A DNA stretch of 64,000 nucleotides from Bretschneidera sinensis (Eukaryota; Streptophyta; Magnoliopsida; Brassicales; Akaniaceae): the NCBI GenBank assembly GCA_023935145.1, contig CM043698.1:64440001-64504000 (forward strand). The letters run 5' to 3'. Under the pieces are notes generated by a model. The model was not told where the DNA came from. It worked only from the letters and a program-made list of their open reading frames with translations, and did not search any database. This document shows, piece by piece, positions 31,375 through 61,599 of the stretch. How positions within the stretch are numbered: the first letter of the stretch is position 1; every line of letters starts with the position of its first letter. The translations under genes and the position numbers were made by a program.

Positions 31375-31444
<70 letters not shown>

Positions 31445-36847: not shown

Positions 36848-37374
36848 GTCAGTTACGGGTAAAATACCAAATAATCTTTCTATCTAGTTCTCCCAAAACT
36901 CAGGCTTAAAAGGATTCATAGATACTTTAAACAATAAAGCATTCAACTTAACAATCTCCCTGGATCTCATGCTTAAACTCACTTTTCCACTTTTGAACAT
37001 TTATCATTACTGGATTAACAACCTCAGGCACTGCTCTAGCCTATTCATCAAGTCTATGCTATAAGCTATCAACTCTATCATCTGTTACATTCATTTTCTC
37101 ATCTCTTTCAACTTCAGATTCTCTCACACCTTTGCTACTATTAATTATACTGTCAACAAGTTCCCTTCTAGGAACCACAAATTCAGACTCAACCTCGACT
37201 TGTCAAAATATTGGGGCTAACCACTCCCTCTCAAATCAACAACTCTAACTCTAGTTCTAGCACATCCACGTGTCATCCTCAGACTATTTAAAATGTAATT
37301 TATTTTAATTTTTCACTTTCTTACTTTTTATGTAGTCTACAGAATCATAAAACCTAATGCTTTAATATCAAAAT

Positions 37375-39424: not shown

Positions 39425-39971
39425 ACAACATATAATCAATCAATGAAATAATTTATATCATATCATACTTTCATATTTCTTTCTCATCATATCTGTCTCT
39501 CTGTGAGACTCATTTGTTTATCAATAATTCCACAATCAAGACTGATACTTTAACATCTCAGTCAATAATAATAAAATAACCAAATAAATAAATGCATGTG
39601 TTTAAATCATCTTTCTTTCTTTCTTTTTCATCACATCATCTCATTATTTTATATTATCATCTGGGAACGTCTTCCCACATGTCGACATGTTTTAGTCAAA
39701 CCAGCTGCCTTCCTAGTCTTCTCAACTAGACCAGCTGCCTTCCTGGTCTTCTCAGCTAGACCATTTGTCTTCCCGGTCTTCTCAGCCATACCAACTACTT
39801 TCCTGGTCTTTTTTTATGCATATGAGCAATAATATACAAGCAAACATACATCCAAGCATTCAATTCAACTATCTAGCTCTTTTTCAAAATTATTATTTTT
39901 TATCATTTTATTAAATTGTCTCCTCATATATCATATCAATTTTTTAATCATATTTTTCATAAATTTCATAT

Positions 39972-41039
39972 CAGTTGCCTCATAAGATTCTCTAGGTCAC
40001 TATTTTCTGATTCCGGCACTGGTTGGAAGTGTCGTTGCTGTCCTTGAAGATTCAAAGCATTTTGAGTGTTGCTCCATGAGAGGTTGGGGTGGTTCTGGCG
40101 TTGTGTAGCCTGTGGACTAGGTGAGTTGTTCTGATCAGCCATGGTTTTTATGAGCATGTCTAGCTTTCTTTCCATAGCAGCCATCTGATTCGAAGATCCA
40201 TCATTGAAGCTCACCTCATACATATCCTTGCTTTTAAATCCTTATCTACCTCTCGAGGAGAATTGCTGGGTGTGCTCACTTAATGTCTCAAACAACTCCA
40301 TGGCTTCTTGACTAGTCTTCTCCATCAGCATACCTCCACAACTGGAATCCACTATACCTTGATTTATACCACTCAAACCTTCATAAAAAGCTAGGACCAG
40401 CTCATCTTGAGGTAAGTTGTGATGTGGACATTTGAGTAGCATCTCATTAAAGTGTCCCCATGCCTCGAAGAAAATGTCTCCGTCCCTCTGTTGGAAGGAT
40501 TGAATCTCCTTTCTCATCTGCCTTGTCTTTTGGGCTGGAAAAAATTTCCTTAGAAATCTACTGGATAGCTCTTCCCAAGTATGGATGGAATCTGCAGGCA
40601 ATGAATGATACCACATTTTAGCATTATCTTTTAATGAAAAAGGGAAAAGTATTAACCTGATTCCCTCTTGATCTAGGCCCCGAATATGCTGGAACTTGCA
40701 GAGATCACAGAATTCTCAAAGGTGCAAGTGTGGATCCTCAGCAGGTGTACCCCTAAAATGAGTCAAGACACTGAGTATCTACGGAGATATGTAATAATTG
40801 TCTTCCGCCTTAGGTTGATATACAATGCATGAAGGATGGTTGAGGTTCTGTGGAATGAAAGATTGCTTCATAGGTCTCCGTTCTGGTGGTGGTTGGTTGT
40901 AAAGCTGTTCCATTGGTGCTTCACCCTCAAATTCTTCTTCTTTCTCCTCGAAGTTGTTTCTAGGCCTCTTTCGAATGATTTGCTCACTCTCTATATCAAG
41001 TGGAAGGATGGTTGGATTCCTCACTCGAAGCTGTTGCAT
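39972..41039 (-). pseudogene. TR-B gag-like ORF, 5' part with capsid domain
   Basis: Starts MQQLRVRNPTILPLDIESE (41039). After an acidic stretch and two nonsense codons (region 40620-40790) comes the retrotransposon Gag capsid domain: MWYHSLPADSIHTWEELSSR, FFPAQKTRQMRKEI and CPHHNLPQDELVLAFYEGL (40616-40242), wording close to Athila Gag. It then reads MAAMERKLDMLIKTM. The zinc-knuckle segment present in TR-A is missing here (the reading jumps at about 40100-40110 from PQATQ to NHPNLSW). It is cut at 39972 by the inversion junction; the expected next residues are encoded from ~55627 on the plus strand. Confidence 0.85.
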
Positions 41040-41104
41040 GAATCAACAGGAATACCTTGGTGCAGCAGCTTCAGTACTGCTGCTCGGGTAGTCTCTGGAC
41101 TATT

Positions 41105-41161
41105 TGCGCTCGAGCGCTCCAAGTACTGCACTCGATCGCACTTTGCTTTGCGCTCGATCGC
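41105..41161 (-). repeat. GC-rich GCGATCGAGCGCA cluster in TR-B leader
   Basis: Three units (gcgctcgagcgc, gcactcgatcgca, gcgctcgatcgca on the plus strand) between primer site and ORF, as in TR-A. Confidence 0.75.
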
Positions 41162-41389
41162 AGTGCCAGAATTAGCACTGATGCACACCTGAAACAAAAA
41201 GCAAGAAAATAACAAAAACGAAGAATTAAGTTAGATAGTTGATGAAAATAAAATAAAATAAAACAAAACAAATTAAGAAAAATATTTAATGAAAAATAAG
41301 AAAATAAAATTGAACAAAATAAGAAAAATAAACGGGAAATAATTCTAAACATTAATTTAGCACAATCCCCGGCAACGGCGCCAAAAACT

Positions 41390-42688
41390 TGTTGGACGAT
41401 TATCTACCTAAATTAATGACTAAATAATCATACTCGTTTTACTTGCAAGTGCACAAGGTCAACTTAGTAGTATAGTGTGCGAAAGCAAGACCATCTCCAC
41501 AGGGATTGGTGAATTTCTTTTTAGAATTATATTCGCAATGTAAAAAAGATAGAAATAATAAAAGAGTTGATTATGATAAAGATAAAATAATAAAGATAAA
41601 GGCGTAGGGACTTGATATCCACCACTAATTATGCTACCACAACAAAACAGTATGCCAATGCTTTACTCATGTCATGAATACCTAATGTTTGTCAACCTAA
41701 GGGCATGGTATCTACTCCTTAAGCTATTGATCTCCCTAAGCAACGAGTTAGGCATGGTATCTACTCTAACTCTTTTCTCTCTCAAGGGATTCAACATGGT
41801 GTATGCTGAGTTGTTCCTTAAGAGAGCATAGGATCTGTGGAAATTGACAACCACACGGGACCTAGGGCATGGTATCTACTCCCGGTTTCCCATGTTGATT
41901 AACCCAAGAATCTGGTGTGTATATCTTTTGTTACTAATGTCAGACCCAGGACTCGGTCATCAAAATTGATCTAACTAACAAGTCCGTACCACATGCACAT
42001 ATTGATCAAACATATACATATGAGGAATTTAAATAAAAGCAGGTATTAATCAAGTTAAGTAACACAACATAAATATCGCAACGGCGCCAATACTAAATTT
42101 ATTGAGTAAACATAATTAGGGCTTCAACCAAGCCCTTACTAAAAGTTAAGTATACATAATAAAAATAAAGGAAAGAAGAAACCCGAGAGAAGAGTCATCA
42201 ATTCTCCTCCACAGTTTCCTTCTCCAAGCTAAAAGCAAAAGATAAAAGAAGGGATCTAAGAAGTGATTATTTGTGTGTGCTTTACAGGTGTATTTATAGG
42301 GCTTGAGTAGTCCTAGAAGGCTCATGAGTTCCTAAACTTTCCTAAAACACAAAACTCCTTTATTTCCAAAATAGGGTTATTTCCAAAATAAGGTTTTGTA
42401 GTTTACTGTTCATGCCCGTACATGTGCGCTCGATCGCATATGTGGTGTGCTCGATCGCAATTCTGCACTCGATCGCACAGAGGAGTGCGCTCGATCGCAA
42501 TCTAGCCAGTAGCTGCTCCATGATTTCCAGATTTCTTCTTTTAAGTGCCAAAAATGCTTCTTTTTCTCCAAGACCCCATAAAAACGTGTAAAACACAAAA
42601 GTGAAGTAAAATAGACTAAAACATATAGATAAAGAACTTAACAAATGTAAATTTTGGGGCTTAAATATGAATATTTAAGCTCCTATCA
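41390..42688 (-). repeat. TR-B 5' LTR
   Basis: 1299 bp; plus strand TGTTGGACGAT...GCTCCTATCA. GC-rich cluster with four units at 42424-42500. Nearly identical over long stretches to 57517-58832: a 66-codon open frame at 41631-41831 recurs at 58391-58591 with no amino-acid change. Confidence 0.93.
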
Positions 42689-44568
42689 TAGTGGCTCGTG
42701 GAACAAAAACGGGTACTCTGTACATGACCTCAAGTGTGAGAGATACTATTGCAGTGGTTGACGCAATAGTTGATACAATCCTATGGCACCTCAGGCTTGG
42801 TCACATGAGCGAAAAAGGGATGAAAGTGATGTTGTCTAAAGAGAAACTGCCAGAGTTGAAATCACTTGACTTTGATTTGTGTGAGAGCTGCATTCTTGGG
42901 AAACAAAGAAATGCCAGTTTCTTAAAAGGCGGCAGAACTCCAAAGCCCAAAAAATTAGAGTTGGTACACACAGATTTGTGGGGAGCTTTCCCGGTTGCAT
43001 CTCTTGGAGGTTTGCGGTATTATATCACATTTATTGATGACTCAAGCAAGAAGGTATGGGTTTATTTTCTGAAAAATAAATCTGAGGTATTTGAGACCTT
43101 TAAGAAATGGAAGACCATGGTTGAGACTGAAACTGGTTTATAGGTAAAATGCTTAAGGTTTGATAATGGTGGAGAGTACATAGATGGGGGGTTTAGAGAA
43201 TTTTATGCTGCTAATGGAATTAGGATGGAGAAGACTATTCCCCGGACACTACAGTAGAATGACATGGCTGAGCACATGAACAGGACCCTCAATAAGCGTG
43301 GTAGAAGTATGAGGTTGCATGCTGGGTTGCCAGAAACTTTTTGGGCCGATATAGTTAGCACAGCAGCTCACTTGATAAATCGAGGACCGTTAGTTCCTTT
43401 GGATTGCAGAATACCTGAAGAGGTATGGAGTGGAAAGGAGGTAAACCTTTCTTACTTAAAAGTTTTTGGCTGTTTATCTTATGTTCATATTGACTCTGAT
43501 GCTCACAGTGAACTAGATGCTAAGTCCAGAAAATGTTTCTTTATTGGCTATGATGATGAAGCTTTTGGTTATTGGTTTTGGGATAATCAAAATTGAAAAA
43601 TCATCAGGAGTATAAATGTGATTTTGAATGAACAGGTTATGTACAAAGACAGGTCAAGTGCAGAATTTGTTGTTACAGGGCCAGAACCAAAGAAGTCTGA
43701 GTTTGTTGACTTGGATGAATTTTCTGAGAGCACAGTGCAGAGGAGTCAACAAAATGATGAGAATACAGACCGACAGGTAAAACAGTGTATGCCCATAAGT
43801 GCTGTCTGAAGGTCTTCTAGGAACATTAGACCTCCACAACTGTTCTCACCATCCTTGTTCTATATTTTGTTGAGTGACAGTGGTAAGCCAGAATGTTATG
43901 ATGAAGCTTTGCAGGTTAAAAATTCTAGCAAGTGAGAGTTGGCCATTAAGGATGAGATGGACTCACTGATGACGAATCAGACATGGGAACTAACTGAATT
44001 GATAGAAGGGAAGAAAGCTTTACATAAAAAAATGGGTGTACAGAGTAAAAGAAGAGCATGATGGTAGCAAGCGCTACAAGGCCAGATTGGTTGTGAAAGG
44101 GTTTCAACAGAAAGAGGGTGTTGATTACACAGATATTTTCTCTCCAGTTGTGAAGCTAACAACAATCAGGCTGGTATTGGGAATTGTGGCTGCAGAGAAC
44201 CTACATCTTGAGCAGTTAGATGTGAAGACAGCATTCCTTCATGCTGATTTAGATGAGGATATTTATATGCATCAGCCACAAGGATTTGCAGTGCAGGGAA
44301 AGGAAAATTAGGTTTGCAAACTGAGAAAAAGTTTGTATGGGTTGAAACAAGCTCCAAGACAATGGTACAAGAAGTTTGACAGCTTCATGTGTAGCACTGG
44401 GTTCACAAGGTGCTAGGCAGACCATTGTTGCTATGTTAAGAGTTTTGACAACTTTTGTATCCTATTATTGTTGTATATGGATGATATGCTCGTTGCAAGG
44501 TCCAACATTGAGGAGATTAAAAATCTCAAGAGGCAGTTGTCAAAACAGTTTGCAATGAAGAATTTGGG
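42689..44568 (+). pseudogene. Copia B, 3' half: pre-integrase, integrase, RT
   Basis: Begins in the TSD and reads ARGTKTGTLYMTSS, WHLRLGHMSEKG (zinc-binding pre-integrase), CESCILGKQ and HTDLWG (first Asp). After a TAG at 43141-43143 it reads RFDNGGEY (second Asp). The expected Glu segment reads NDMAEHMNRT, where the usual QQNGVAER is damaged. It then gives SRKCFFIGYDDEAFGY, stops, RT with KARLVVKGFQQ, DVKTAFLHADL and [13 protein letters not shown], and the catalytic YMDD at 44474-44485. It is cut after FAMKNLG at 44568 by Gypsy F. The missing 5' half is 58833-60015 on the minus strand. Confidence 0.9.
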
Positions 44569-46137
44569 TGCTGATTACGCCCAAAGAGTAACGCGGTTAT
44601 TGTAGCACAGCTTTGGGGTGTCGATTCCACAGAGAAACAAGTTAACTACAAAGGAAGGTGTAAACTTTAATCTAAAACGATAAATCCAAATGAGTAAGAG
44701 AATCTGAAATTGATAGTGAAACAATTATGTAAAGTAGATTGTGAAGTATAATAGGAGAATAACAAGTATCTGGGAATCTTCCCGAGGTTCGTTGCCCTAA
44801 TCCTAACTTGATTCAGCTATTTTTATCTCGATTGCAAGTTTCACATCCCAAACAGGAAATAAGCAAATATTCAATTAAAGCGCATGTATAAACCCTAATT
44901 TGATTGTTATGAAATTCTTTTTATTTTCAATTCATGCACACATGATCTATCCTATAAGTTTATCAAGAAACGACAATATACTTTGATGACAATATTGCAG
45001 TAATGGACAAACCTAAAGACTAGATCTACCGGACTCAATTATACCCAAATAATCTTGATATAAAGAAAGCATGACTAAATCTATATCAAGGAAAAAGATA
45101 CAATCACCGGATTAGATGAAATCTTTATAATTAGATTAAAAAGTAAATCATAATAATGTTTGAACGTTAAAGCTCTTTTACAACTGAATCAAGTAAGGGA
45201 AATAGAAACAACTACACCTAGGGATTCATTTCTTCGCTTCGCTTAGAGATTAGTTAGCCATGGGGCTCATGGTTGCACAATTTTGATGGAGGAAAAGTTG
45301 TTGCTTCCTTAAGTTTTCCAGGTTTTTTTGAATGTCTAATTACAAACCCTAAGTGGTCTATTTGTAGTGTACAAGGCCTAAGGGTGTTTTAGGTTTGACC
45401 AAATCATTAAAGACCTAATTAGGGTCTAACTCGGAGAGCAAATCCTGTTCGTGCGCTGCACCTTGACTTGGGCGCGTTGCACCTTAGCCTTTGTCAAGTT
45501 TCTTGTGTGTGCGGTGAGGTTCGCCTCAGCTTCTCCAGGGTGTGCCTCAACCCTTCAAGGTGCACCTCAACTGATCCAAGGTGTGCCTCAGCCTAATGGC
45601 TTTTTAAGCTTCTTTTGGTCTTCTTTCTAAAGGGTGCGCCTCAGCTAATCTAAGGTGCACCTTAGCCTGATGCTTGTTCAGGAGATATGACCTTTTTCTA
45701 CTGAAACCACCATAACTTTCTCTAGGAAAATCATTTTTATGAACCGTAAAATCCTCCAGAAAATAGACTTCTAGATCTTTCTAAAAATATATGGATCATC
45801 TCTTGGTTCTTCCTACATCAATACAGTTTAATTTGCAAAGATGATTGATTTGTATGGCAATTCTGGCAACTTAGTGAAAACTCCTTTCTTAGTTTCTCTT
45901 CATCTTGGCTCTTCCGCGACCATTCTCTCACTCGAGTATTCATTGAAGCTTCATTTTTAAAATGATGATAGCTTTTCTATCTCTTTTAACTTAAGATACC
46001 TGAAAATGCACCGATATAAGTTAATGCTCCAAGAATACCACTTTAGAGTTGTTAACGATTAAAAATGCAATTAAAACCTAAATCAATCCTAAAGTGCTAA
46101 CAAATAAGTATGATCAAGATGCATTTTATGGCTCTCA
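44569..46137 (-). repeat. Gypsy F 3' LTR
   Basis: 1569 bp; plus strand TGCTGATTACGCCC...GGCTCTCA. The minus strand starts TGAGAGCC after the PPT-like gttggggattgtaa. A GC-rich tract at 45440-45670 repeats AAGGTGCACCTCAGCC-like words about eight times. 5' partner absent. Confidence 0.88.
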
Positions 46138-47809
46138 TTACAATCCCCAACTAGCTTATTGCTAGTTCCTAGCAATTCAAGCGAAAACAAGAGATGAATT
46201 CTATGGTGGGAATTAAAGTCAATGAAAGCAATATTAGTGTTAACCAAGAGTAATTCATATTTTGTCTAAAAAATTGCACATAACACATGGCACATAGAAT
46301 CATTAAATTTCACCTAAGTCCAAAAGTAATCCAAACATCAATCTTAAAATCGTTATTGACTTTTAACATCCATCTTACCACAATCCATTAGTCCAAACAC
46401 CCGGATGATTTTATGCATAAAATTCATGAATACAAGTCTTGGCCTCTAAGAACATAATAAATTGTGTGATATCAATCACAAGTCAAGCTCCATAGGCTTA
46501 CTTTTCAAATCACTCTCCACTATTGTAGAAAAATCACACTACATTGGATTAAAAGGTCTTTAATAAGCTTGTAACGTTAGGCTAAGGTAAAGGTTAAGGA
46601 AGAACGGGAAAGATTCGCAAGTAAAAGAACCAAATCTCTTAGTTTTAAACACAATCACTTTAAGCACTTGGTAACCTTTACTTCAACACCCAACTCTTTC
46701 AACCATTTTTCGAGCATTTCTTTCAACGAATCACCATTTTTTCTTTTCTTTCTTTCTTCTTTCTTTGCCATAATTCATTTTTTTTTTATGGCACATAACC
46801 ATTCACCTCCTCTTTCATTCTTTTTCTTTTCTTTTCCATAACCCCCAACTTATCTTCTTTAATATACTTGGGTTGTGGTTTTTCATATTTCCATCCTTAC
46901 TCCTCTTGAGTGCTTCTCAACAATGTGTACAACTAAGTTCTTTTAAAAGAAAGGTAAGGATAAAATATTTTTAGGCTCATGATGGTAAGTAAATAGGTTT
47001 TTGAAAGAAACAAGGCTCAAATTTTTTTTCAAGAAAAAGGCTCAAATAGGTGACTAGTGGTATATATTGCAAGGGTAGGTTTGAAAGGCTCAAACGGTTC
47101 AAAAATGGCCTATATCATATCCTAAGTAGTGTGCATTTTAGGAATTCGCCTCAAGTGATTATCAAATAAGTTCTAGAGCTTGTTTAGACCACAAAAGTAT
47201 TCACAAACAATCGCACATAAAACTTTTCTAGATGTTTTAAACTAATCATACTATCTTACCACAAACTAGAGTCTCTAACCAAATTAAGATTGACACTTAA
47301 ATTATTCTCAAACCGAAGCAAGATTTAACTTATTCTACATGCTATCTGCTATCTCAATTAAGCTCATATCATTGACATGTGAATTAACTCTAAGGCTAAC
47401 ACAAAGCATGTTTAAAACAAAAGATACGGACAATGACACCAAGCAGTTTAATGAAAGGCAAATCATATGTTTCCTCCACCCCCAACTAAGAATTACATTG
47501 ACCTCAATGTGAAAGAGAAAGTAAAGGAAACTCCCCTTTTGTAATCACAAGTGCATAACAGCTGAAAGCAGCGCATCTCCATTTAAACTGCACGCTCTAC
47601 TTTTTGTTAAAAGGTTGATCTGCAAAATAGAACAAACAAAAAGAAAGCAACGATGGTGTACTATGAAGACACCCACCATATGTTAGTACATGAACTAAAA
47701 AGAAACAACTGAGTACAAAAAATAATGAAAAGGAAAACATATTGAAAGATAGAGTAGTGAGGCGATAAAAAAATAAAAGAGAAAGAAACAAACAAGATAG
47801 AACCCAAAA
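46138..47809 (-). other. Gypsy F spacer between extra ORF and 3' LTR
   Basis: No ORF. Pyrimidine-rich runs (ttcttttctttctttcttc near 46740) and many short A/T words. The end next to the LTR contains the likely PPT (minus strand gttggggattg). Confidence 0.6.
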
Positions 47810-48950
47810 TTAATCATCAATATCTTCAAGCTCTACCTCATTCTCTTCTTCATTCTCTTCACTTTCCCCTTGAGGTGGATCGAAAGATGAACTCAGATAG
47901 GGTGGCATAGTGGGAAAGTGATCCATATGACATCCAGTAGCGGAGGCAATGTGATGGTACGTTTGACCAAAAGAATTGAATACCTCCGCTTGATAATTAG
48001 CTTGCCTAGATAAGAACTGTTCTTGACGATCTAGCCTATTAAACAATAGTTTATGGTGTTCTTCAAAACAATGCTCTAAGTGGTCAAGACGCTCTACAAT
48101 GGTGAAATTTCTAGAGGGAGGCGGGGGAGCAGAAATTATGGCTCCCTCTTCCGGATTTGGTAGCTTTGAGGTTTTAATTAGATTGAACATGTAATCATCG
48201 ATGGGTTTCTTGGGTGGTTGGTGCTCTTCGAGACTACTGTAAGGGACATTAGCTTGGATGCATAGTTGGGTAAGCAAAGAAGGAAAGTATAATCCAAGCT
48301 TATGTCGCACAGTGTGTAAGATAGAATCGAATATTATTTCACCCACATTTATAGTCATACCCATCAAAATGGCATATATCAAAACAGCTCTACAGTCAGG
48401 TCACTATAATGTAAAGCAAGCATCATCCTTTGACACATAAAATATTGCCAAGCTCGAGCATTGACATTCAAAGATGCGCTGGGTAAGGTTTTAGGGGTAT
48501 CACCCGTCATTTTCTAGGTTGTGCCCAAAATATAGAGAGTGTTGCAAATCTCATCATAATCAATATTAGATGCATATGCAAGATACTCACTATGTTCTAT
48601 GTCGGGTAACCCATAAAACTTATTAATGGAAGAGCAACTAAAAGAGACTATTTTACCTCTAACTAAGACTTTACCATTCCTATGTTCGTCGGCATTGGCA
48701 TAGAATTCGCAAACTATGTTTGGTAGAGAATTAGATGGTTGTCTTGAAAAATTGCCCCAATTTCTATCAAGAACCATTCTAAATAAGGATGGGTTTCCCT
48801 TCTCAGTGATATTGAATCCTCGCTCGGGAATGATTTTTCCTAGCACTTAACAAGCTATTATATCTCTCACTAGCCTCAAAGCTCACAAATTTTGACTCAT
48901 CATACTCTTGTTTTTGTTTCCCCCTAGACCTCTTGAATTTTGGTGCCATG
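47810..48950 (-). pseudogene. Gypsy F third ORF (plant transposon protein, Transposase_32-like)
   Basis: ATG at 48950 gives MAPKFKRSRGKQKQEYDESK, then SERYNSLLSAR. A one-base shift in an A-run (near 48835) leads to IIPERGFNI, LPNIVCEFYANA and SINKFYGLPDIEH. After a stop (48514-48516) it reads NARAWQYFMCQRM, and after a second shift RAVLIYAILMGMTINVGEII and FPSLLTQLCIQANV. This matches the putative plant transposon protein domain found downstream of pol in Athila-type elements. The C-terminus is very acidic (ENEEENEVELEDIDD). The protein's role is unknown; some call this position env-like. I see no membrane segment. Confidence 0.75.
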
Positions 48951-49890
48951 AAAGTCAAATATATAGAACAATAGATGTAGAGGAAAATTTAACCACCAAA
49001 GAACACAAGTGAACCATCAAGGGAAGAAATCAGACTTACTTGAGGTCCAAAATGGGAGAAAGGAAAGACTAACCACCACCTTGAAGTTTTGCTTGATGAA
49101 CACCAAAAGCTTTCTTAGAACCCAGTTGAGTGGAGGAATTTCCAATAGAAATTGCAAGATTAGAGCAAATTTCTATAAGAAATGAAGGTGAAATGAAGAA
49201 ATTTAGAGTAAAAGTGAGGAGGGAGGCTAGGGTATGGAGAGGGAAAGGGAGAAAATAGAGAAAAGCTGCTAAAATTGTGAGTGTGAACTGAAGAGAGGAA
49301 GTGCAGAAAGTAGGGTTTTTGATTAAAAAGGGTTTAGGCTTGGGCTTTAAGGTGCGACGTAGGCTGGGTGAGGCGTGCCGTGGGCTGGGCCAGTGTGCGT
49401 GCGCACATTGTGCGGCACGGCGTGGGCTTGGCGAGGTGCACCTTGACCTGGGCCTTGTTGGGCTAGTGTGCATGCGCACACTGTGTGGCGCGGCGTGGGC
49501 CTGACGAGGCGCACCTTGACTTAGGCCTTGCTGGGCAAAAAAAAATGCTGTTTGCTTGCCAAAAATAAAAATAAAAATGGAATTAGCCAAATAAAAAAAT
49601 AAAATAAAATAATCTTAAATTAATTGAAACTAAAAAAATAAAATTTAAGATAAACTCACAAAATAAAAAAATAAAAAAAATAAAAGGAAAAAAAACGTAC
49701 CTTGGTTGTGTGATCAAGTTTAAGGTAAATAGACCGGATCCATAAGTGGAATGTCTTCCACCTCCGGATCTTGCCTATTGATTAAGATCTTAAGGCACTG
49801 ACTGTTCACTTTAAAAATCTGACCGTCCCTAGTGTCCTCAATTTCCACTGCTCCATTTTCGAAAACATTTTTTACTATGAAAGGACTAGT
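48951..49890 (-). other. Gypsy F spacer between pol and third ORF
   Basis: Non-coding A-rich DNA with a GC-rich tract at 49340-49525 of repeated ggcgaggtgcaccttgacc / gtgcgcacattgtg words, like those in the LTR. A 173-codon open frame over it (49069-49590) is His/Pro/Arg-rich low-complexity and probably not a gene. Confidence 0.6.
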
Positions 49891-50820
49891 CTACCTTGAC
49901 CGAAGTTTTCCAGGATGCTTATGGAGCCTAGAGTCGTATAAGAACACCCGATCATTGGGTTTAAATGTTTTTCTCAAAATATTTTTATCATGGAATACTT
50001 TCATCTTAGCCTTATAGATTCTAGAATTCTCATAAGCATCGTTTCTTAATTCCTCTAACTCGGTCAACTGGTATTTCCTAAGCTTACCTGCTTCTCCTAG
50101 GTCAAGATTAAAAGACTTGATGGCCCAATAAGCTTGGTGGTCGAGCTCTATAGGTAAGTGACAGGGCTTTCCAAAAACAAGCCGGTAAGGTGACATACCT
50201 AAGGGGGTTTTAAAGGCTGTACGGTAGGCCCAAAGCGCATCAACTAGTCTCAAAGACCAATCCTTGCGATCCGGGTTAACCATTTTTTCTAAAATTTGTT
50301 TAATTTCCCTATTGGCAAGCTCTACTTATCCACTAGTCTGAGAGTGATAGGCAATAGAAATTTTATGCAATACCCCATATTTTTTCATCAAAGCTTCAAA
50401 AGAACGGTTGTAAAAGTGTGTACCTCGATCACTAATTATAGCACGTGGTGTACCAAATTGAGATAACACATTTTCTTTAAGAAATTTAATTACCGTTCGA
50501 TTATCATTGCTTCGGCAAGCTGCTGCCTCTACCCACTTAGATACATAATCTATTGCCACGATGATATATTGGTATCCGAAGGAAGGAGGAAAGGGTCCCA
50601 TAAAATCGATGCCCAACCAATCAAAGATTTCAATCACTAAAATAGGGTTTAAGGGCATCATATTTTGTCTAGACATAGCTCTTAAATTTTGATACCTTTC
50701 ACATGAATGACAATAGATGTTTGCATCTTTAAACAAGGTAGGCCAATAAAATCTACACTGTAAAATTTTTGCAGTGGTTTTTTTCATTGAAAGTGGCCTA
50801 CACAAGCTTGGGTATGACAA
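49891..50820 (-). pseudogene. Gypsy F integrase
   Basis: After a frameshift near 50800 it gives KKTTAKILQCRFYWPTLFKD and CHSCERYQ (zinc Cys pair), GIDFMGPFP (first Asp), SKWVEA, GTPRAIISDRGTHF (second Asp) and SIAYHSQTSG, with a TAA at 50323-50325 where Gln is expected. It then reads [12 protein letters not shown] (Glu), [19 protein letters not shown] and GKPCHLPIE, and ends WHDK-like [11 protein letters not shown] and [17 protein letters not shown]. All catalytic acids are present. Two lesions separate it from function. Confidence 0.92.
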
Positions 50821-51794
50821 AATTCTAAGACGCTAGCAATCTCTTCATTAGGGATGCAACACCTTAAAATTTGGTCAGGGCAGTACTTGAAAAGATAGGG
50901 GTCATCCCAATAAAAATTATGTACCTCATATAAAAATTTCCTTTTGTCTTGAGCACTCCAATCCATAAGTATCTCACCTATAGCCAAATAATTCACTATG
51001 TGAGCGAACCATGGTAGAGAAATGATGGACAGTAATTGCTCATCGGGAAAGTCATCCTTGATTGGTATGTCATCACAAGTGTCCTCAAAAGTGAGTCGTG
51101 ATAGATGGTCAGCTACTACATTTTTCACTCCTTTCTTGTCCTTGATGGTGATGTCAAATTCTTGCAAGAGAAGGATCCATCGGATTAGTTGTGCCTTAGC
51201 ATCCTTATTTGTAAGAAGATACTTGAGGGCTGCATGATCTGTGAAAATAAGGATAAGAGAACCAATCAAATAAGCATGAAATTTATCTAAAGCAAATACT
51301 ACGGCTAGTAATTCTTTTTCAGTTGTAGAGTAATTCATTTGAGCACTATTTAGAGTTTTACTAGCATAGTAAATGACAAAAGGTTTTTCTTCCCTTCGCT
51401 GTCCAAGAATAGCACCTACAGCGTAGTCACTAGCATCACACATAATTTCAAAAGGTAAAGTCCAATCCGGTGACTGCATTATAGGTGCCGAAGTAAGCTT
51501 GCTAATTAGCATTTGGAAGGCCTCTTGACAAGCTTGTGTCCATTCAAAGGGAATGTCTTTTACGAGGAGGGAACATAGAGGTCTAGATATGTTTGAGAAA
51601 TTTTGTATGAATCTCCTATAAAAACCAGCATGACCAAGGAAAGATCTCACATCCTTTATTGTCTTAGGGGTAGGTAATTTAGAGATTAATTCAATTTTTG
51701 ATTGATCAACCTTTATTCCTTTAGAAGAGACAATATGCCTTAGGATAATACTGGATGGTACTATGAAATGGCATTTTTCCCAATTTAAAACCAA
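50784..51794 (-). pseudogene. Gypsy F RT thumb and RNase H
   Basis: Open frame continuing after a TAG near 51816 in the RT palm. It begins LVLNWEKCHFIV, KLPTPKTIKDVRSFLGHAGF and YRRFIQNFS. RNase H follows with FEIMCDASDYAVGAILGQR, YSTTEKELLAVVFALDKF and FTDHAALKYL, then LLLQEFDITIKDKKG and VADHLSRL. This is complete for the domain. Without the single stop it would be part of one polyprotein with 51816-53474. Confidence 0.92.
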
Positions 51795-51815
51795 TTCTTT
51801 CTCCTCACAGCGAAT

Positions 51816-53474
51816 CTATACTCTCTCTAAATTTATTAAGCATGCATCGAATGAAGATCCAAAAACAGTTAGGTCATCCATAAAAACTTCCATGAAATTT
51901 TCAACCATGTCACTAAAGATACTCATCATACAACGTTCAAAAGTAGCAGGAGCATTATACAATCCAAACAGCATTCTACAAAAAGCATAGGTGCCAAAAG
52001 GACAAGTGAAAGTGGTCTTTTCTTGGTCTTCTAATGCAATTGCGATTTGATAATAACCGGAATAACCACATAAAAAACAGTAGAAGGGATGACCAGCAAC
52101 ACGCTCAAGAATTTGATCAATGAAGGGGAGTGGGAAGTGGTCTTTCCGGGTGGTACCATTTAATTTTCTATAATCAATGCACATACGCCACCTGGTCACA
52201 AGTTTGGTAGGGACTAGTTCTCCTAGGTCATTCTTCACCACCGTGACTTCGGACTTTTTAGGGACTACTTGTGTAGGGCTGACCCACTTACTATTAGCTA
52301 TGGGATATATAATACCAGCATCTAATAGTTTCAGCACTTCATTTTTCACTACTTCTTTCATAGTGGGGTTTAGCCTACGTTGAGGGTCTTTACGAGGACT
52401 AGCTTCTTCATCTAAATTTATTTTATGAGAGCAGATTAGGGGACTAATTCCCTTCAAATCAGCCATGCTCCATCCTAAAGCTGATTTATGTGCATTTAAA
52501 TTTTGAATTAATTTCTTACCTTGGGTCTCAGATAAGTTAGGAGAAATTATAACAGGAAAAGTATCACCTGGACCGAGAAAAGCATGCTTTAATCCCTTTG
52601 GTAGTGGGTTTAATTCGACCTTAGGTCCTTCCACATTTGAGGGGACTAGTGTCTGGCTTCTTTCGGGCAACTCCTTAAACCTTGGTTGCCATGCCCGCTT
52701 GCTATAATCCTGAAGATTGTCAAAAACAGCACAAACATCAATTATATTCGTTTTATCATTAGATAAATCTATTTCAGAACTAACAAGAAATTTTTTAAGA
52801 GGATCATAATCATGAGTTAAAGAGACTCCCTCATTGATGAGTGACTCAATCATGTAAAGCTGGTGGTTTTCGTCCTCATCTTCGGGCTGCTTTGCAACAT
52901 CAAAAATATTTACTTCAAGGGTCATTTTGCCAAAGGACAGTTTCATGAGTCCATTCCTACAATTTATTAGAGTATTCGCAGTAGCAAGGAAAGGTCTACC
53001 CAAAATTAAAGGGATTTTTGAATTAGTGTTAACAGCAGAAGTGGTATCAAGAATTAAGAAATCAACATGATAGTAAAATTTATCAATTTGAATCAAAACA
53101 TCATCTACCACACCCCGGGGTACTTTGATTGAATGATCAGCTAATTGTAACACCATGCCAGTTGGTTTGATTTCTCCTAAACCTAACTGTAAATAAATGG
53201 AAAATGACATCAGGTTGACACTAGCTCCTAAATCTAGTAAGGCTTGTCCAACCTCATGATTTCCAATGCTACAAGCAATGGTTGGACAGCCCAGGTCTTT
53301 ATATTTTGGGGGAATTCTTTCCTCAATTAAAGCATTAACTTGCTCAGTTAGGAATGTTGTTTTCTTGACATGGTGCTTCCTCTTGATTGTGCATAAATCC
53401 TTGAGAACTTTTGCATAGGTGGGAACTTGTTTAATCACATGCAAGAGTGGAAGATTTAGTTTCACTTGCCTCAA
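51816..53474 (-). pseudogene. Gypsy F protease and reverse transcriptase
   Basis: 552-codon open frame. The Gag/protease linker KQVPTYAKVLKDLC is followed by the protease active site ALLDLGASVNLM (DLGA at about 53222-53236, the Athila form of DSGA) and the flap-like ILGRPFLATANTLI. The pre-RT linker VELNPLPKGLKHAFLGPGD then leads to RT with SKWVSPTQVVPKK, WRMCIDYRKLN, FPLPFIDQILERV and GYYQIAI, and the catalytic FMDDLTVF at 51873-51884. Ends at a TAG after NLERV. The pre-RT linker is the region that the TR elements have fused to gag. Confidence 0.93.
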
Positions 53475-53780
53475 ATTCTCTAGGATTTCATTATTTATTT
53501 TCAGATTTTTCTTGTTTGATTTTAAGGCTTGAGGGAATGGTGCCTTAATAGGACTTTTGGTTACTTTAGGGTCCTTAGGCTGTTCGGTTTCACTACTAGC
53601 TTGCCTCTTTTTCTCATCCTAGGATTTATTCATTGGTGGGATGTGTAGTGACTTACCACTTCGAGTCACAATGACATTTACATCTTTCAAATTTTCTTGT
53701 GCCATATGTTGATGGTGAGGATTGGACTGAGCTTGGGAAAGGAACTTACCTCGCTCAATTTGTGTTCTACCACTTAAACT
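53475..53780 (-). pseudogene. Gypsy F gag C-terminus, truncated
   Basis: Reads IERGKFLSQAQSNPHHQHMA, QENLKDVNVIVTRSGKSL and HIPPMNKS, then a stop and QPKDPKVTK, leading to the protease ORF. This is the usual Gag-protease junction of Athila-type elements. It loses similarity at about 53780, so capsid, leader and 5' LTR are absent. Confidence 0.78.
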
Positions 53781-55620
53781 TTAATTTGTTGGTGCATAAT
53801 TTTTCTTGTTGGAGTTACTGTGATTTGTCAAGATTGTACCATTCCTATGTTACTTGTAAAAAAAAGGATTTTTGCTATATTACAAATGACAGGACTTATG
53901 GTTTCCTGAATTGTTATTTAATAAATACAGTGTTGGCCCTGATGCTCTTACTTTCAGAAATTTTGTCAGTGAGCTTCACTATTTAACATCTAGGAATTTC
54001 TTTGCCTGCTATAGTTTCAGCGACAGGATTCTTGGAGGATTTGTCTCTCAGACTATTTGCACAGACCAGTTTGTCCCATACCACATAGAAGTAATGCTTT
54101 TAGGTGCCATTCTTTTACAGTGGCAGGCAAAGCATTTGACCTTCCGGGTGTGAAAGCTGCTTCCATGGCATTGACAAGGTTAATTTTCTTATGTCCATTA
54201 ACTCACTGCTTAACTGTAAAATTGTGTTAGTTTTGACCATTTTTTCCTTTATTATTTGTTGCAACCTTTTTAGTTATTCGTTTTTGTGAAAACAAAATTC
54301 AATGCTTAGATTCAATCAGAATGGGATAATGTGATAGGGTCTATCATCGTATCATCTGTGTGCTACCATGTTTGTTTATATGGTGAAGAATGTCTATGAT
54401 GGAATTTTAACTACTGGAATTAGCTTCCTTGAAGACAAAATAGGTCAACTGGCTGGCCCAAAATAATTAGGTCAAAGGATTTGCTATGTTGGGTTGAACA
54501 TGATCATGCATGCACTAATTCTCTCATGATTTTCCATGGCTGTAGGTATATTATTGTATTGATGTTGCTAGTGTGTTTATAGCTAATGATGGTTGGTGCT
54601 AATGCTAGTTAGGGTTAAGATTGTTTCCGAAGTAGATAACTTTCATAGTGAGTTCATGCATGCCTCCAAGAGAATATTATGAAGTGAATCTTTTAAAGGA
54701 GTTTCGGGTGTAACTGGAAGAATCAGTCCACGTAGTATCTCTTGGTTTAAAACATCTTCTGTGTACTCACTGGAATGAGGCTTTTGGTAGAAAGATAGCT
54801 TTGGAGGAAGGAATGATCATAGCTCGTAGGATTTCAAATCTCACATGTTAGAGAAATGATAATTATTGAATCATTTAAGTCTCTAAAAGGATCCACAGTT
54901 ATTGTGTAAAGACTATCGAAGTTTCTCCAAGAAAGAATGAACAAAGTTTGATAGGTTTGATTAGACTATTAAGCAAAGTGGATATTACTTATTGGTTTAT
55001 GTAACGAAGATTATGATTTGAAAGGATTAATTAATTTCCTCAAAGACAAATTGATTAGAGGCAGGTAAGTGTCATATTTTTTTTTTTTTCATTTTTTGAA
55101 ACAAATTCAAAGTAAACCTATTGAGCCTATGGGCTACAGAATGGGAGGTAGTCATCTTGCCTTCCTTATCCCTTCCATCCCTAATGTGAGTGGGGTTTTG
55201 ATCCTCAGTTTCTTGTGCGATAACAAGTGACTCCACCAACTAAGCTAGTTGACTCCCACATATAAGTGTTATCTAATGCAAGAATTCTGTGTTGTGGAAA
55301 AATATGTTCAAGTGTATACTGATGCTTAGAGTTTAGGAGGAACAGTCATGTTTCCTGAGAAAATTGGCGGCAGAATAAAATGGTCCTGCTGGAAATTGGG
55401 TATTATTTCATGAATGACCGAAATGTAGATTGATATTGAAGTGCCACAAAAAACGTTATAAAATGTTAATCGATTAAAGCATATGATAATCTGTAGTATT
55501 AGGACATTTTTGTAAAACATCAAAAGCCTTGGGGGAATGGTAAAGGGGGATCTTAATTGAACTTTACATGGGCAGTAAACTAGGGGCTCATTTGGTTCGC
55601 GGATAGGATTATCATGGGAT
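53781..55620. other. Unassigned segment between Gypsy F and TR-B 3' part
   Basis: Unrelated to either neighbour. Two short stretches look exon-like: about 53930-53985 (GPDALTFRNFV, between an ..acag and a ..gtcag/tgag) and 54121-54176 (GKAFDLPGVKAASMALT, after ttttacag and before gttaat). I do not recognise the gene. A SINE lies at 55076-55262. 55580-55620 (ggggctcatttggttcgcgg...) resembles one end of a PIF/Harbinger MITE, truncated at the junction. Confidence 0.45.
55076..55262 (-). mobile_element. tRNA-derived SINE
   Basis: On the minus strand it begins gtgggagtcaactagcttag, with a pol III box A (tagcttagttgg, 55236-55247) and a box B-like gaggatcaaaacccc (55192-55206) about 30 bases on, and ends in a poly(A) tail (plus-strand T-run 55076-55090). 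It is flanked by a 10-bp duplication, taagtgtcat (55066-55075) and taagtgttat (55263-55272), with one mismatch. Spacing, tail and duplication together identify a SINE. Confidence 0.85.
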
Positions 55621-55626
55621 AGGTTC

Positions 55627-56193
55627 ATGATTGAGCAACGACAAACCACTACAAAACATGAGCAAGCCATTCAAAGACTCGAGGAACAAATGGGGCAATT
55701 GGCTAAGGAGCTAAGTGAAAGAAAGTTGGGTGAACTTCCAGTCCAACCACTACCTACTCCAAGAGGACATCAGCAACTAAATGCCGTGACAACTCTAACA
55801 AATGGTAAGATCATCGAAACTGATGAGCCTACACAAGCATCCACATCCAAAGTAAGTGAGATGGAGAAGGTTGAAATCAAAAGATATAATGTATTAAAAT
55901 TACCCCCAGATAATATAAAATGTTTTAATATATGCATGATGCAAAGTGTTATTGAGGAAGCTTTTCAGGTCCATCACGTTGATCCAGTAGAGCCTTTTCC
56001 AAAGCCTCCAAGTAAGTACACCGATCCATTTGAAATTCTTGGGCCTACTAATACTATTCTTCCCCCTTTTATTGTACAGGCACCTAACTTGGAATTCAAG
56101 CAGTTGCCCGAGCACTTATCTTATGCTTATATGGGAGAGAATAAGACACTTCCTATGCTAGCTGCTGCCACTCTTAGTTTTGGGGAAAAATAA
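55627..56193 (+). pseudogene. TR-B gag-like ORF, 3' part
   Basis: Open for 188 codons: TTTKHEQAIQRLEEQMGQLA (coiled-coil-like), a Thr/Pro/Gln linker, KYTDPFEILGPTNT, and NLEFKQLPEHLSYAYMGENK ending in FGEK and a stop. The end resembles the linker before RT in Athila/Tat pol, directly followed by a stop where RT would start. The apparent ATG at 55627 is created by the junction; the true ORF start is at 41039 on the other strand. Confidence 0.82.
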
Positions 56194-57516
56194 AGTTTGG
56201 TCCGGCTGAAGACGTTAAACTTAGCTCTCATGGGAGGCACCCCATAGCTTATCCTTTTATTTTTATTATTTTACATATTTATTGTTATTTATTTATTTTT
56301 ATTACTTCTTGTTTTCCCGTATTACGTTAGTTTTTCTTTTTTAGGGACAATGTGTGCATCTGTTCAAGTTTGGGGGTACACTATGAGCCATGCCGACCTA
56401 GCTAGTTCTCCATCTCCTAGGTCAGCTCTTTCCTTGTTATTCACACATTGGGAACAATGTGTAATTTAAGTTTGGGGGTATGGAAGACACATTCACACAC
56501 ACCTTGTCCCAGTTTTTTTTTTTGTTTTGTTGTTTTTCATAGATAAATACATGTTCATTCCGTTCCAAAATTTTTGGGTGTTCTAAACAAACAATATGAT
56601 TTGACTTCATAAGTGAGCTTAACACCTTGAACATATGGGCCAATAATTAAGTTTTGAACCATAATCACTTTCTTTTAGGCATTTAAGGATTCACAAGTTC
56701 GACTTAAACTAAACATGAGCACATTAGCACATAGTTGTGTGGGGTATGACATGTAATTTTGATTTGTATGTTTCTTTTGCTTGACTGTGAACTAGATGAC
56801 CTATTAGATTACCGCGGTGGCATAAGAAAGTAGAAAAAGTTCGTTATTGCTCAAAAAGAAAAAAAATGCTCCTAAAGATCATTAAAAAGAACTTTCCATT
56901 GAGTAACTGGCCCTCTTGCCTCAGTAAGCAGTGAGTGTCACGTCAAAAGGTAGAATATTCTTATCAGTAGCATTAAGACCAGTTAGTTTCGTAGCCTTTT
57001 TTACTCGAGTTAGTAAGCCCTTAGGGGTGTTTCTACACCTAATGCCCTAAAACCATCTGGTTTGGAAGTCATTGGCTAAACACTCGTTACACGAGTCAAA
57101 TAGAAAGCTTAAGGGAACTAACTTGGCAAAAATCTCACAAATAAAATAAAAGAAGAAAATCTATGCCATCTTTTTTGATTCTAATAGGAAATTTGGTGAA
57201 TCTTGAGTCATCGAAACACTACACATTAGAATTATTTGGAAACCCAATCTTTTATGTGCTAGTCCACCACACACTCAGTCAAACTTGCGATGTCTTAACC
57301 TGCCTCATAAAACTGATTTGCGTTCAAAACTCATATTCATTGCAAAGATGTGTTTATACTTGTTAAGCTTGCTCATGAATGCGCATCATAGTTTTGTGTG
57401 AAACTTAAACTTTTGTTGGACACCATGAGCATTGAATTTATCTTTGTGTCTTTGTTTTTCATTTAGTTTTTGGTTTTGTATTTCTAAGGGACTAGCAATA
57501 TGTAAGTTTGGGGGTG
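56194..57516 (+). other. TR-B spacer with PPT-like motifs
   Basis: Holds the tgggaggcacccc segment (56208-56243), PPT-like aagtttgggggt near 56367 and 56469, one copy of the block that is duplicated in TR-A (56975-57150), and the true PPT aagtttgggggtg ending at 57516. No ORF. Confidence 0.75.
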
Positions 57517-58832
57517 TGATAAGAGCTTAAATATTCATATTTAAGCCCCTTAATTTACATTTGTTAAGTTCTTTATCTATATGTTTTAGTCTATTTTACT
57601 TCACTTTTGTGTTTTACACGTTTTTATAGGGTCTTGGAGAAAAAGAAGCATTTTTGGCACTTAAAGGAAGAAATCTGGAAATCCTGGAGCAGCTGCTAGC
57701 TAGATTGCGATCGACCGCACTCCTCTATGCGATCGAGCGCAAAATTGCGATCGTGCGCACCACATATACGATTGAGCGCACATGTATGGGCATGAACAGT
57801 AAGCTGCAGAACCTTATTTTGGAAATAACACTATTTTGGAAATAACTTTATTTTGGAAATAAAGAAGTTTTGTGTTTTAGGAAAGTTTAAGAACTCATGA
57901 GCCTTCTAGGACTACTCAAGCCCTATAAATACACCTATAAAGCACACACAAATAATCACTTCTTAGATCCCTTCTTTTATCTTTTGCTTTTAGCTTGGAG
58001 AAAGAAACTATGGAGGAGAATTGACGACTCTTCTCTCGGGTTTCTTCTTTCCTTTATTTTTATTATGTATACTTAACTTTTAGTAAAGGCTTGGTTGAAG
58101 CCCTAATTATGTTTACTCAATAAATTTAGTATTGGCGCCTTTGCGATATTTATGTTGTGTTGCTTAACTTGATTAATACCTGTTTTTATTTAAATTCCTC
58201 ATATGTATATGTTTGATCAATATGTGCATGTGGTATGGACTTGTTAGTTAGATCAATTTAGATGACCAAGTCCTGGGTCTGACATTAGTAACAAAAGATA
58301 TCCACACCGGATTCTTGGGTTAATCAACATGGAAAACCGGGAGTAGATACCATGCCCTAGGTCCCGTGTGGTTGTCAATTTCTACAGATCCTATGCTCTC
58401 TTAAGGAACAACTCAGCATACACCATGTTGAATCCCTTGAGAGAGAAAAGAGTTAGAGTAGATACCATGCCTAACTCGTTGCTAAGGGAGATCAATAGCT
58501 TAAGGAGTAGATACCATGCCCTTAGGTTAACAAACATTAGGTATTCATGACATGAGTAAAGCATTGGCATACTGTTTTGTTGTGGTAGCATAATTAGTGG
58601 TGGATAGCAAGTCCCTACGCCTTTATCTTTATTATTTTATCTTTATCATAATCAACTCTTTTATTATTTCTATCTTTTTTACATTGCGAATATAATTCTA
58701 AAAAGAAATTCACCAATCCCTGTGGAGATGATTTTGCTTTCGCACACTATACTACTAAGTTGACCTTGTGCACTTGCAAGTAAAACAAGTGCGATTATTT
58801 ACTCATTAATTTAGGTAGATAATCGTCCAACA
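57517..58832 (+). repeat. TR-B 3' LTR
   Basis: 1316 bp, TGATAAGAGC...CGTCCAACA. GC-rich cluster of four units at 57706-57780; TATA box about 57923-57930. Several differences from the 5' LTR in the GC-rich cluster are changes at CpG. Confidence 0.93.
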
Positions 58833-60015
58833 CACTACCATGGCTCTCTTTGTAATCTTCCAAGTACCAGCCCCAAATGTCATCGTGTGACCTTCAACAT
58901 CAAGCTGTCCTACAGAGATCAAGTTCTTCATCAATTTTGGAACATGTTGCACTTTCTGTATCAACCACATAGACCCATTCGGCAATTTAATGCGAACGTT
59001 TCCCATACCCATAATATCCAAGGCTTCTCCATCAGCCAAATATACCTTCCCAAAATCACTTGTCACATAGTACTCCATGATTTCTCGGTGTACGGTGGTA
59101 TGGAAAGAAGATCCTGAGTCCAAAACCCAAGAGTCAATGGGATTGTCAACAAAAAGTAATAGGGTGTCCTGTAATTCTTCTGTCACAGCATTTGCAGCAT
59201 CGTTCTAATTCCTTTTCTTCTGCGGTTATCTACAATTTTTCTTAAAGTGGCCAGTCTTGCCACAATTCTAGCATTTCAGTTGTCATCCAGATCTGGATTT
59301 ACTCCTACCTCCTCTTCTGGATTTTGATCTACTTCGATTGGAATTTCTATCCTATACTCTACCTCTTGTCTCAAGATTTAAAGTGGAACCAGAACCTGAG
59401 GTTTCACCCGCATCTCTCCTACGAACCTCTTCGCTTAAAATCAAATCCCGAATATCTTCATATTTGAGTTTATTCTTCCCTGCAGAATTACTCACCGCCA
59501 TTCTTATGGCTTCCCAACTGTTTGGCAAAGAAGGCAAAACAATTAAAGCACAGATCTCATCATCAAAATCAATCTCAACAGAGGACAATTGATTATCAAT
59601 TGTATTGAACTCATTCAGATACTGCGCAACAGGGGTACTTTCCGCCATATTTAAATTGAACAACTTTTTCATCAGATGCACTTTGTTGTTAGCCGACGGT
59701 TTTTCATACATACTGGACAAAGCCGCCATCATATCCTTGGTGGTCTTCTCCTTCATAACATTGTGCGCAACTTATCTTGATAAAGTTAATCGAATAACTC
59801 CAGTACCTGTCTATCAAGAAGATTAAATTCGTCTTCTTTCATACTGTCTGGCTTTGCCCCTAACAGAGGCAAATGTAATTTCTTCCCATAGAGATAATCC
59901 TCAATTTGCATCCTCCAATACCCAAAATCTGTGCCATCGAATTTCTCGATTCCTATCACATTTCCTTCTTCTCCGGCTATCGCTCCCACTCAAAAAACCA
60001 ATAGCTCTGATACCA
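58833..60015 (-). pseudogene. Copia B, 5' half: gag and protease
   Basis: On the minus strand, after the primer site (60015-60003, tggtatcagagct), Gag starts MGAIAGEEGNVIGIEKFDG (59989). It shifts frame near 59760 and continues DMMAALSSMYEKPSANNKVH and LKYEDIRDLILSEEVRRRDA, an Arg/Ser-rich tail with stops, and a zinc knuckle C*NCGKTGHFKKNC whose first spacing carries a stop (about 59240-59280). Protease is open with SWVLDSGSSFH and HVPKLMKNLISVGQLDVEG, and ends WKITKRAMVV at the TSD. The next residues are encoded from 42694 on the plus strand. Confidence 0.9.
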
Positions 60016-60017
60016 GT

Positions 60018-60700
60018 TGTTAGGGTTAAACTACCCTATCCCTACGGATCTTGAGATACGAATATAGAGAAGAAAATAGAAATAAATCAAAGACAAACTC
60101 ACAGCACACAAATTTACGTGGTTTACCCAAACTCGGGTTACATCCATGGAGTTGCAGCAATTTCACTATGTCTTGAAGAACAATACAAGGAGGTCTCACC
60201 CCTAGACACCCCTCACAGTATTCACAAAAATAGCTCACGCACTTACACAAAAGAATAAGATGAAACCCTTATATTTCCAGGTTAAAATAAAACATATACC
60301 AAACAGTGCTGAAAAGATCAGATTAGACAAAATAAAAAAATTAAAAAAACCATCAGGCTCCACATATAGCCTAATAAGGGGAAAGTAGCTCGAATGAGAG
60401 AAAGAGGATTTTCTCTTCATTTGCGGCTGCAAAGGGAAAGGTTAGGGATTAAATGGGTAGAGATAGTCTTTTATACCTAGGGTTAGATTGGGGTAAGGAC
60501 TGGGTTGTGGGTTGGATCCGAGTTTAGTCAAACACTGGTTCAAATAGGTTCTGGGTTTAGGTATTAGCTTTAAGTATGATGGCCCAATTTGGTTTAAAAT
60601 GAGGGCATCTAGTTAAATCCGAAATAAGATGGGGTTTTGGGGTATTGGGTTTGGATTTTTTAACTTATTTTGGGGTCTTTTTATTTATATTCTTAACCAA
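60018..60700 (-). repeat. Copia B 5' LTR (outer boundary uncertain)
   Basis: On the minus strand the LTR ends ...aaccctaaca two bases before the primer site, so its inner edge is 60018. The outer edge cannot be fixed because the 3' LTR is missing; gtcaaaca at 60526-60533 is one candidate start. 60700-60940 is AT-rich and unassigned. Confidence 0.6.
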
Positions 60701-60939: not shown

Positions 60940-61563
60940 CACTGACAGAGAGACAGTTATGGTGATAAGAACCATCTAAATTGTAGACTTTATGATGTGA
61001 ACCTCATTGCGAGGTAATTATGAGATAATTGATGGTCTTGAGGTGAACCAATAAATAAGAAGAAGAGATTGATAGAGAATAGGACTTATGATATATGTAG
61101 TGATAGTTAAATGCTAGTATCAAGTGGTATGAGATATAAATGATTAAATATTGAAAGACTATTTATACAAACTGAATACTTGTAGTAAATTTAATTCACC
61201 GAGCTTGTGAAGCCCACCCTTCATTGTACAATGATTTCAGGTAGCAGACAGGACAGTAGTTTGGTGGGTTAAGAGTCAAAAGAAATCATTTTCTGTAAGC
61301 CACGTGCATGTCAACATCCTCAAACAAATGAGAAAAATGAAACAAATAAATTTTTATTTGTAAATATTCATGCATTTTACTTTGTGTATTATGTTTAAAT
61401 CAATATCAAATTGATATATCTCCCCTGTTGAGGGTAGAGGATTGAAGTAAAAGAATTTTTGTTAGTATTATTATTTTTATTGTTGCATATATGTGTCATG
61501 CTGGGATTTTCAAAATGTGATGACATCGTCTCGGGGGTGACCAACTCGTGATGGGTCGTTACA
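60940..61563 (+). repeat. Gypsy E 5' LTR, 3' part
   Basis: Reverse complement of the first part of the Gypsy C LTRs as written on the plus strand, including cacaagctcagtg-equivalent words, and ending tcgttaca. A ~25-bp gap near 60965 compared with Gypsy C. Confidence 0.85.
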
Positions 61564-61567
61564 ATTT

Positions 61568-61580
61568 TGGTATCAGAGCA
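61568..61580 (+). other. Gypsy E primer-binding site (tRNA-iMet)
   Basis: tggtatcagagca, perfect, four bases after the LTR. Confidence 0.9.
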
Positions 61581-61599
61581 TTAGGTTTTTTGATTATGT

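What the first reader, a model, noticed from the sequence alone, without database searches (positions are those of the whole stretch)
39972..58837. One retrotransposon (TR-B) split by a ~15.6-kb inversion, shown by reverse-complementary target duplications
The TR-B 5' LTR (41390-42688, minus) and 3' LTR (57517-58832, plus) face opposite ways. Their flanks are tagtg (42689-42693) and cacta (58833-58837), exact reverse complements. Copia B protease stops at AMVV at 58833 on the minus strand and resumes as ARGTKTG at 42694 on the plus strand in the same codon phase. TR-B's gag-like ORF is also split, at 39972 and ~55621. A single inversion of 39972-55620 restores all of these at once; independent insertions would not.
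Basis: seen in the sequence. Interest (0 to 1): 0.88.

Follow-up and report, generated by a model that had tools for sequence, protein, structure and literature searches.

The report
Inversion patched with copied DNA
In a plant chromosome, a break inside one jumping element and a second break nearby appear to have been rejoined with the 14-kb piece between them flipped and one seam filled by a 1.9-kb copy of DNA from about 12 million bases away; it is an unusually clear example of a known kind of break repair.

Summary
One LTR retrotransposon (TR-B) sits inside a Copia element, and its two halves now face opposite ways. In 14 of 14 relatives examined the halves are neighbours, 15 bases apart. 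In 6 of 6 Copia B relatives fetched, the two Copia pieces are adjacent and share one 5-base target. Independent insertions do not explain this.

Window 53755-55623 is a 99.7% copy of a low-copy locus about 12.5 Mb away on the same chromosome, which is still in place. It joins a gypsy element, broken near 53757, to the TR-B break. So the flipped piece is about 39972-53754 (13.8 kb). The outer side is not restored by the flip: the LTR ending at 39971 and the gypsy element are both truncated, and the continuations I probed are not in the window or 30 kb of flanks. The three junctions share 2, 3 and 1 bases.

Best reading: one recent double-strand-break repair event (about 0.01-0.34 My by filler divergence) gave an inversion, a deletion and a 1.87-kb templated filler. 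The kind is known; the instance is well resolved. No reads or relatives' genomes were available.

The parts
39972..53754 (.). Flipped piece (about 13.8 kb): TR-B 5' half, Copia B integrase/RT part, truncated gypsy element
   Evidence: Breakpoint edges; ends ambiguous by 2 and 3 bases because of junction overlaps.
39970..42688 (-). TR-B 5' half with 5' LTR 41390-42688 and gag domain
   Evidence: gag PF03732 at 40242-40715; PBS-like stretch after the LTR.
42689..42693 (.). Target duplication, copy 1 (reverse complement of 58833-58837)
42694..44571 (+). Copia B, integrase and reverse transcriptase part; truncated at 44571 by a gypsy LTR
   Evidence: gag_pre-integrs domain; 39 of 39 listed Copia relatives leave the window at 44572-44573.
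44572..53757 (-). Gypsy element (Athila-like, lineage name recalled), 3' LTR end at 44572, pol 49891-53618, broken near 53757 before its gag
   Evidence: Pfam RVT_1, RNaseH, rve; edges.
53755..55623 (+). Templated filler: copy of C2:52038743-52040613
   Evidence: 99.73% over 1871 columns; 3 substitutions and 2 single-base gaps; donor intact on both sides.
55623..58832 (+). TR-B 3' half with 3' LTR 57517-58832
58833..58837 (.). Target duplication, copy 2
58838..60377 (-). Copia B, 5' LTR, gag and Pol_BBD part
   Evidence: Retrotran_gag_2 and Pol_BBD; outer edge at 60372-60377 in 5 of 6 relatives, 60042 in the sixth.
39425..39971 (+). Left flank: LTR_Y (first part 30187-30885), truncated at the junction
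   Evidence: 10 of 10 fetched relatives continue past 39971 with other sequence.
30886..39424 (+). LTR element X nested in LTR_Y, 5-bp duplication ACAAC
60947..61569 (-). Start of the 3' LTR of element Z on the right flank
   Evidence: Self-match; partner LTR in L062 at 93.7%.

Best explanation
A recent double-strand-break repair event. One break fell inside the gag region of TR-B, which was already inserted in Copia B. A second break or gap fell to the left, between LTR_Y and a gypsy element that was itself inserted in Copia B. The 13.8-kb piece between the breaks was rejoined the wrong way round. One seam (LTR_Y to TR-B 5' half) was closed directly on 2 shared bases. The other (gypsy to TR-B 3' half) was closed by copying about 1.87 kb from a locus 12.5 Mb away on the same chromosome, entering on 3 shared bases and leaving on 1. 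Fifteen bases of TR-B and at least several kb between LTR_Y and the gypsy element were lost. Shown by sequence: the split element, the copied filler, the truncations and the junction overlaps. Inferred: the break-repair pathway (end joining combined with template copying, SDSA or polymerase-theta-like), that it was one event, and that the missing sequence was deleted rather than moved.
For: TR-B halves 15 bases apart in 14 of 14 relatives examined. Copia B pieces adjacent with a single target in 6 of 6. The two window LTRs are each other's closest match, 96.3% against at most 94.3% for the other LTRs compared. Filler 53755-55623 matches C2:52038743-52040613 at 99.73% and the donor runs on past both ends. 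Only the window and the donor match the full 1761-base filler query. Junction overlaps: AT at 39970-39971, TCA at 53755-53757, G at 55623. 10 of 10 LTR_Y relatives and 39 of 39 listed gypsy relatives diverge from the window at the junctions. Probes for the Copia B 3' end, gypsy gag and rest of LTR_Y found no continuation in the window or 30 kb of flanks. Filler divergence is 3 substitutions in about 1.87 kb against 48 in 1299 between the TR-B LTRs.
Against: Only one assembly was seen, with no reads and no related accession. The junction overlaps are only slightly more than chance (summed probability 0.034 to 0.049). Tree support for the two LTRs as sisters fell from 0.997 to 0.670 when closer copies were added. 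The missing sequence could lie beyond the flanks examined. A 1.87-kb filler from 12.5 Mb away is longer and farther than the fillers described in the passages I saw.
Confidence: 0.74

Rival explanations
1. Two steps: an older repair placed the filler beside the broken gypsy element, and a later inversion happened to break at the outer end of the filler and in TR-B.
For: The present sequence does not show the order of events; the filler reads continuously from gypsy to TR-B.
Against: It needs an extra junction and an inversion breakpoint falling exactly where the copied stretch ends; the single-event reading needs three junctions.
Confidence: 0.15
2. Assembly or chimeric-read artefact.
For: No reads could be checked.
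Against: The junctions join non-homologous sequence, not long repeats where assemblers usually err. The two TR-B halves fit to 15 bases. The filler differs from its donor at 3 substitutions and 2 single-base gaps, though a second haplotype could also give such differences.
Confidence: 0.06
3. The first reader's simple inversion of 39972-55620 with no filler and no deletion.
For: It does restore the TR-B and Copia B order.
Against: 53755-55623 is a copy of a distant locus; the left flank and the gypsy element do not continue each other.
Confidence: 0.04
4. Independent TR-B insertions or homologous recombination between inverted repeats.
For: The TR-B family is repetitive, and related LTR elements lie in inverted order on both sides (34901-37968 against 60963-64000).
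Against: One target duplication shared by both halves and single empty sites in 6 of 6 Copia relatives; breakpoints lie in non-homologous sequence with 1-3 shared bases.
Confidence: 0.01

Closest known systems
Filler DNA at end-joined double-strand breaks in plants (maize p1 locus, PMC2686159, passages seen; wheat rearrangements, PMC7156093, passages seen)
   Same: Previously unlinked sequences joined, with deletion and inserted DNA copied from elsewhere; templates said to lie more often in cis.
   Different: Fillers in the maize passages are 1-131 bases, 50 in p2/p1; here about 1.87 kb from 12.5 Mb away, placed at an inversion junction.
Template-copied fillers in gene movement (Wicker et al. 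2010, 'Patching gaps in plant genomes'; only the reference-list entry was seen; content recalled) and filler by synthesis-dependent strand annealing in rice (PMC4423477, passages seen)
   Same: A foreign genomic segment copied into a break, with the donor kept.
   Different: Rice excision fillers in the passage range from 1 to 123 bases; here the filler bridges two different elements at one end of an inversion.
TR-GAG non-autonomous LTR elements (search listing only; definition recalled)
   Same: TR-B has LTRs of about 1.3 kb, a PBS-like stretch and a gag domain, and no pol domain was found in its two ORFs of at least 120 aa.
   Different: This copy is split; the family was not compared with published TR-GAG sequences.

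Membership tests
Chromosomal inversion | Two formerly adjacent points now lie apart in opposite orientation | tested here: met
   TR-B halves (14 of 14 relatives) and Copia B halves (6 of 6).
Chromosomal inversion | The outer flanks become contiguous when the piece is flipped back | tested here: not met
   LTR_Y and the gypsy element are both truncated and do not continue each other; an added deletion is required.
Templated filler at a break | Inserted segment is a copy of a locus that is still in place | tested here: met
   99.73% copy; the donor continues on both sides.
Templated filler at a break | Short shared bases at the junctions | tested here: inconclusive
   2, 3 and 1 bases; summed probability by chance 0.034-0.049.
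Templated filler at a break | Dependence on a particular repair pathway | not testable with these tools
   Needs genetics.
Homologous recombination between inverted repeats | Breakpoints inside long homologous repeats | tested here: not met
   Junctions join different elements with 1-3 shared bases.
LTR retrotransposon insertion (TR-B) | TG...CA LTR pair with a 5-base target duplication and an empty site in relatives | tested here: met
TR-GAG | Gag only, no pol | tested here: met
   Only PF03732 in the two ORFs of at least 120 aa inside this TR-B copy; membership in the published group not tested.

The most novel reading that the evidence does not exclude
A single repair event both inverted a 14-kb segment and copied a 1.87-kb, apparently intron-bearing gene-like fragment from 12.5 Mb away into one inversion junction, so that small inversions and movement of gene fragments in plants can be two results of the same repair, with long-range template copying at inversion junctions.
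Probability: 0.6. Interest if true: 0.5.

Novelty: new member of a known kind. Interest (0 to 1): 0.4.

Why it matters
Nested elements with target duplications act as a ruler: they show to the base what was joined, lost and copied, without an outgroup genome. The filler also dates the event separately from the insertion it broke. If reads confirm it, the case links a small inversion with long-range copying of a gene-like fragment, and the same test (one target duplication, opposite LTRs) could be run genome-wide to count such events.

Tried and rejected
Simple inversion of 39972-55620: rejected because 53755-55623 is a filler. Independent insertions and homologous recombination between inverted repeats: rejected. 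The filler as a retroposed copy or DNA transposon was considered: it reads as genomic DNA with splice-like borders (my reading) and lies between two different elements, so it has no target duplication of its own; I did not run a transposon-specific test. The donor gene was not identified. A search for the missing outer pieces in the window and 30 kb of flanks found only the known 5' LTR of Copia B, simple repeats, and 71-81% matches to LTRs of related elements. Rfam gave one hit, which I think is unrelated. Literature searches listed nothing whose title or start of abstract describes this same combination; only passages of five papers were opened, so I make no claim that it is not in print.

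Full report
What was checked. The window is C2:64440001-64504000 of an unnamed plant-like assembly of 1.21 Gb. Self-comparison finds the TR-B LTR pair at 41390-42688 (-) and 57517-58832 (+), and the related intact element TR-A at 2545-8020. Globally aligned, the TR-B LTRs differ at 48 of 1299 sites, K2P 0.038. With recalled rates of 1.3e-8 and 7e-9 per site per year this is about 1.5 to 2.7 My. The flanks are CACTA on both sides in TR-B orientation.

One insertion. In 6 of 6 Copia B relatives fetched (of 39 listed), the Copia sequence on either side of the TR-B site is adjacent, and the two matches overlap by exactly five bases, the unduplicated target. Of the 41 matches listed, only the window itself spans the TR-B/Copia B junction, so no second or uninverted copy of this insertion was seen in that capped list. 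The two window LTRs are closest to each other (96.3%; next 94.3%). In a tree with eight other loci they were sisters with support 0.997; after three more loci were added support was 0.670. Similarity and target duplication therefore carry the argument more than the tree.

Where TR-B broke. Against the genome, no listed place other than the window spans 39971 or 55623. In 14 of 14 relatives examined (L019-L026, L029-L034; L029 by coordinates only) the two TR-B points are 15 bases apart. The break thus cost TR-B 15 bases.

The filler. Window 55321-55623 has a match at C2:52040311-52040613 given as 100%. The full match is 53755-55623 to C2:52038743-52040613, 99.73% over 1871 columns, with three substitutions and two single-base gaps in homopolymers. 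The donor continues with its own sequence beyond both ends, so it was copied, not moved. In a search with 1761 bases of the filler only the window and the donor match in full; one other place matches about 0.75 kb at 81%, and 38 further matches are short, about 100-180 bases, mostly one dispersed repeat. The donor looks like part of an intron-bearing gene (my reading); it was not identified. On the left the filler abuts a gypsy element. In the 40-match list, the 39 places other than the window end at 53755-53760, and 7 of 9 fetched copies show the same three bases TCA before diverging (two lacked the exact anchor word, but their matches end at 53757 too).

The outer side. The left flank is an LTR (LTR_Y) that holds an inserted element X at 30886-39424 with duplication ACAAC. 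10 of 10 fetched LTR_Y relatives run on past 39971 with sequence unlike the filler or TR-B. The gypsy element ends its 3' LTR at 44572 inside Copia B's reverse transcriptase, where 39 of 39 listed Copia relatives part from the window at 44572-44573. So between LTR_Y and the gypsy break there should be the gypsy gag and 5' LTR, the Copia B 3' end (about 1.26 kb in L051), and the rest of LTR_Y. Probes for Copia B 3' (3 copies), gypsy gag (2 copies) and the rest of LTR_Y (2 copies) found no continuation in the window or in 30 kb of flanks: only Copia B's own 5' LTR, simple repeats, and 71-81% matches to LTRs of related elements. Loss of at least several kb is the simplest reading; transfer elsewhere is not excluded.

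Junctions. LTR_Y/TR-B shares AT (39970-39971), gypsy/filler shares TCA (53755-53757), filler/TR-B shares G (55623). By chance three junctions would share six or more bases in total with probability 0.034, or 0.049 at this base composition, so microhomology is suggested, not shown.

Date. Three substitutions in about 1.87 kb give 12.7-181 thousand years at 1.3e-8 or 24-335 thousand at 7e-9 (95% Poisson limits; rates recalled). This dates the copying and, if it was one event, the inversion, well after the TR-B insertion.

Mechanism. Two breaks, wrong-way rejoining, one seam closed directly and one by template copying, best fits end joining with a synthesis-dependent filler. The passages I saw describe filler copied from templates, more often in cis, with deletions (PMC7156093; PMC2686159), and strand-annealing fillers in rice of 1 to 123 bases (PMC4423477). 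A 1.87-kb filler at an inversion junction is larger than those. A replication-based route would tend to duplicate rather than to leave reciprocal halves (recalled), so I rank it lower. Steps shown: the anatomy and the copy. Steps inferred: the pathway, simultaneity and deletion.

Verdict. Observation confirmed; interpretation partly supported. It is a new member of a known kind, with good resolution.

Noticed in passing
window 2545-8020: TR-A, an intact relative of TR-B with AAGGG duplications, lies inside a Copia element whose 865-bp LTRs are at 75-939 and 10806-11670.
   Followed up: partly
window 40414-40519 (+): Rfam snoR71 (RF00097) scores 41.8 against a cut-off of 40 inside TR-B, antisense to its gag domain; perhaps a chance hit or a transposon-derived family.
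   Followed up: no
window 55106-55263: A dispersed repeat of about 150 bases inside the filler, with many copies at 75-84% in the genome.
   Followed up: no
window 55579-56193 (+): An open frame runs from the filler into the TR-B gag tail; probably meaningless.
   Followed up: no
window 60378-60946: About 570 bases between the Copia B 5' LTR edge and the element Z LTR match neither; origin unknown.
   Followed up: no
window 6022-6365: 174-bp tandem duplication in TR-A.
   Followed up: no
window 16570-21306: Copia element (-) with 244-bp direct repeats 96.7% alike at its two ends.
   Followed up: no
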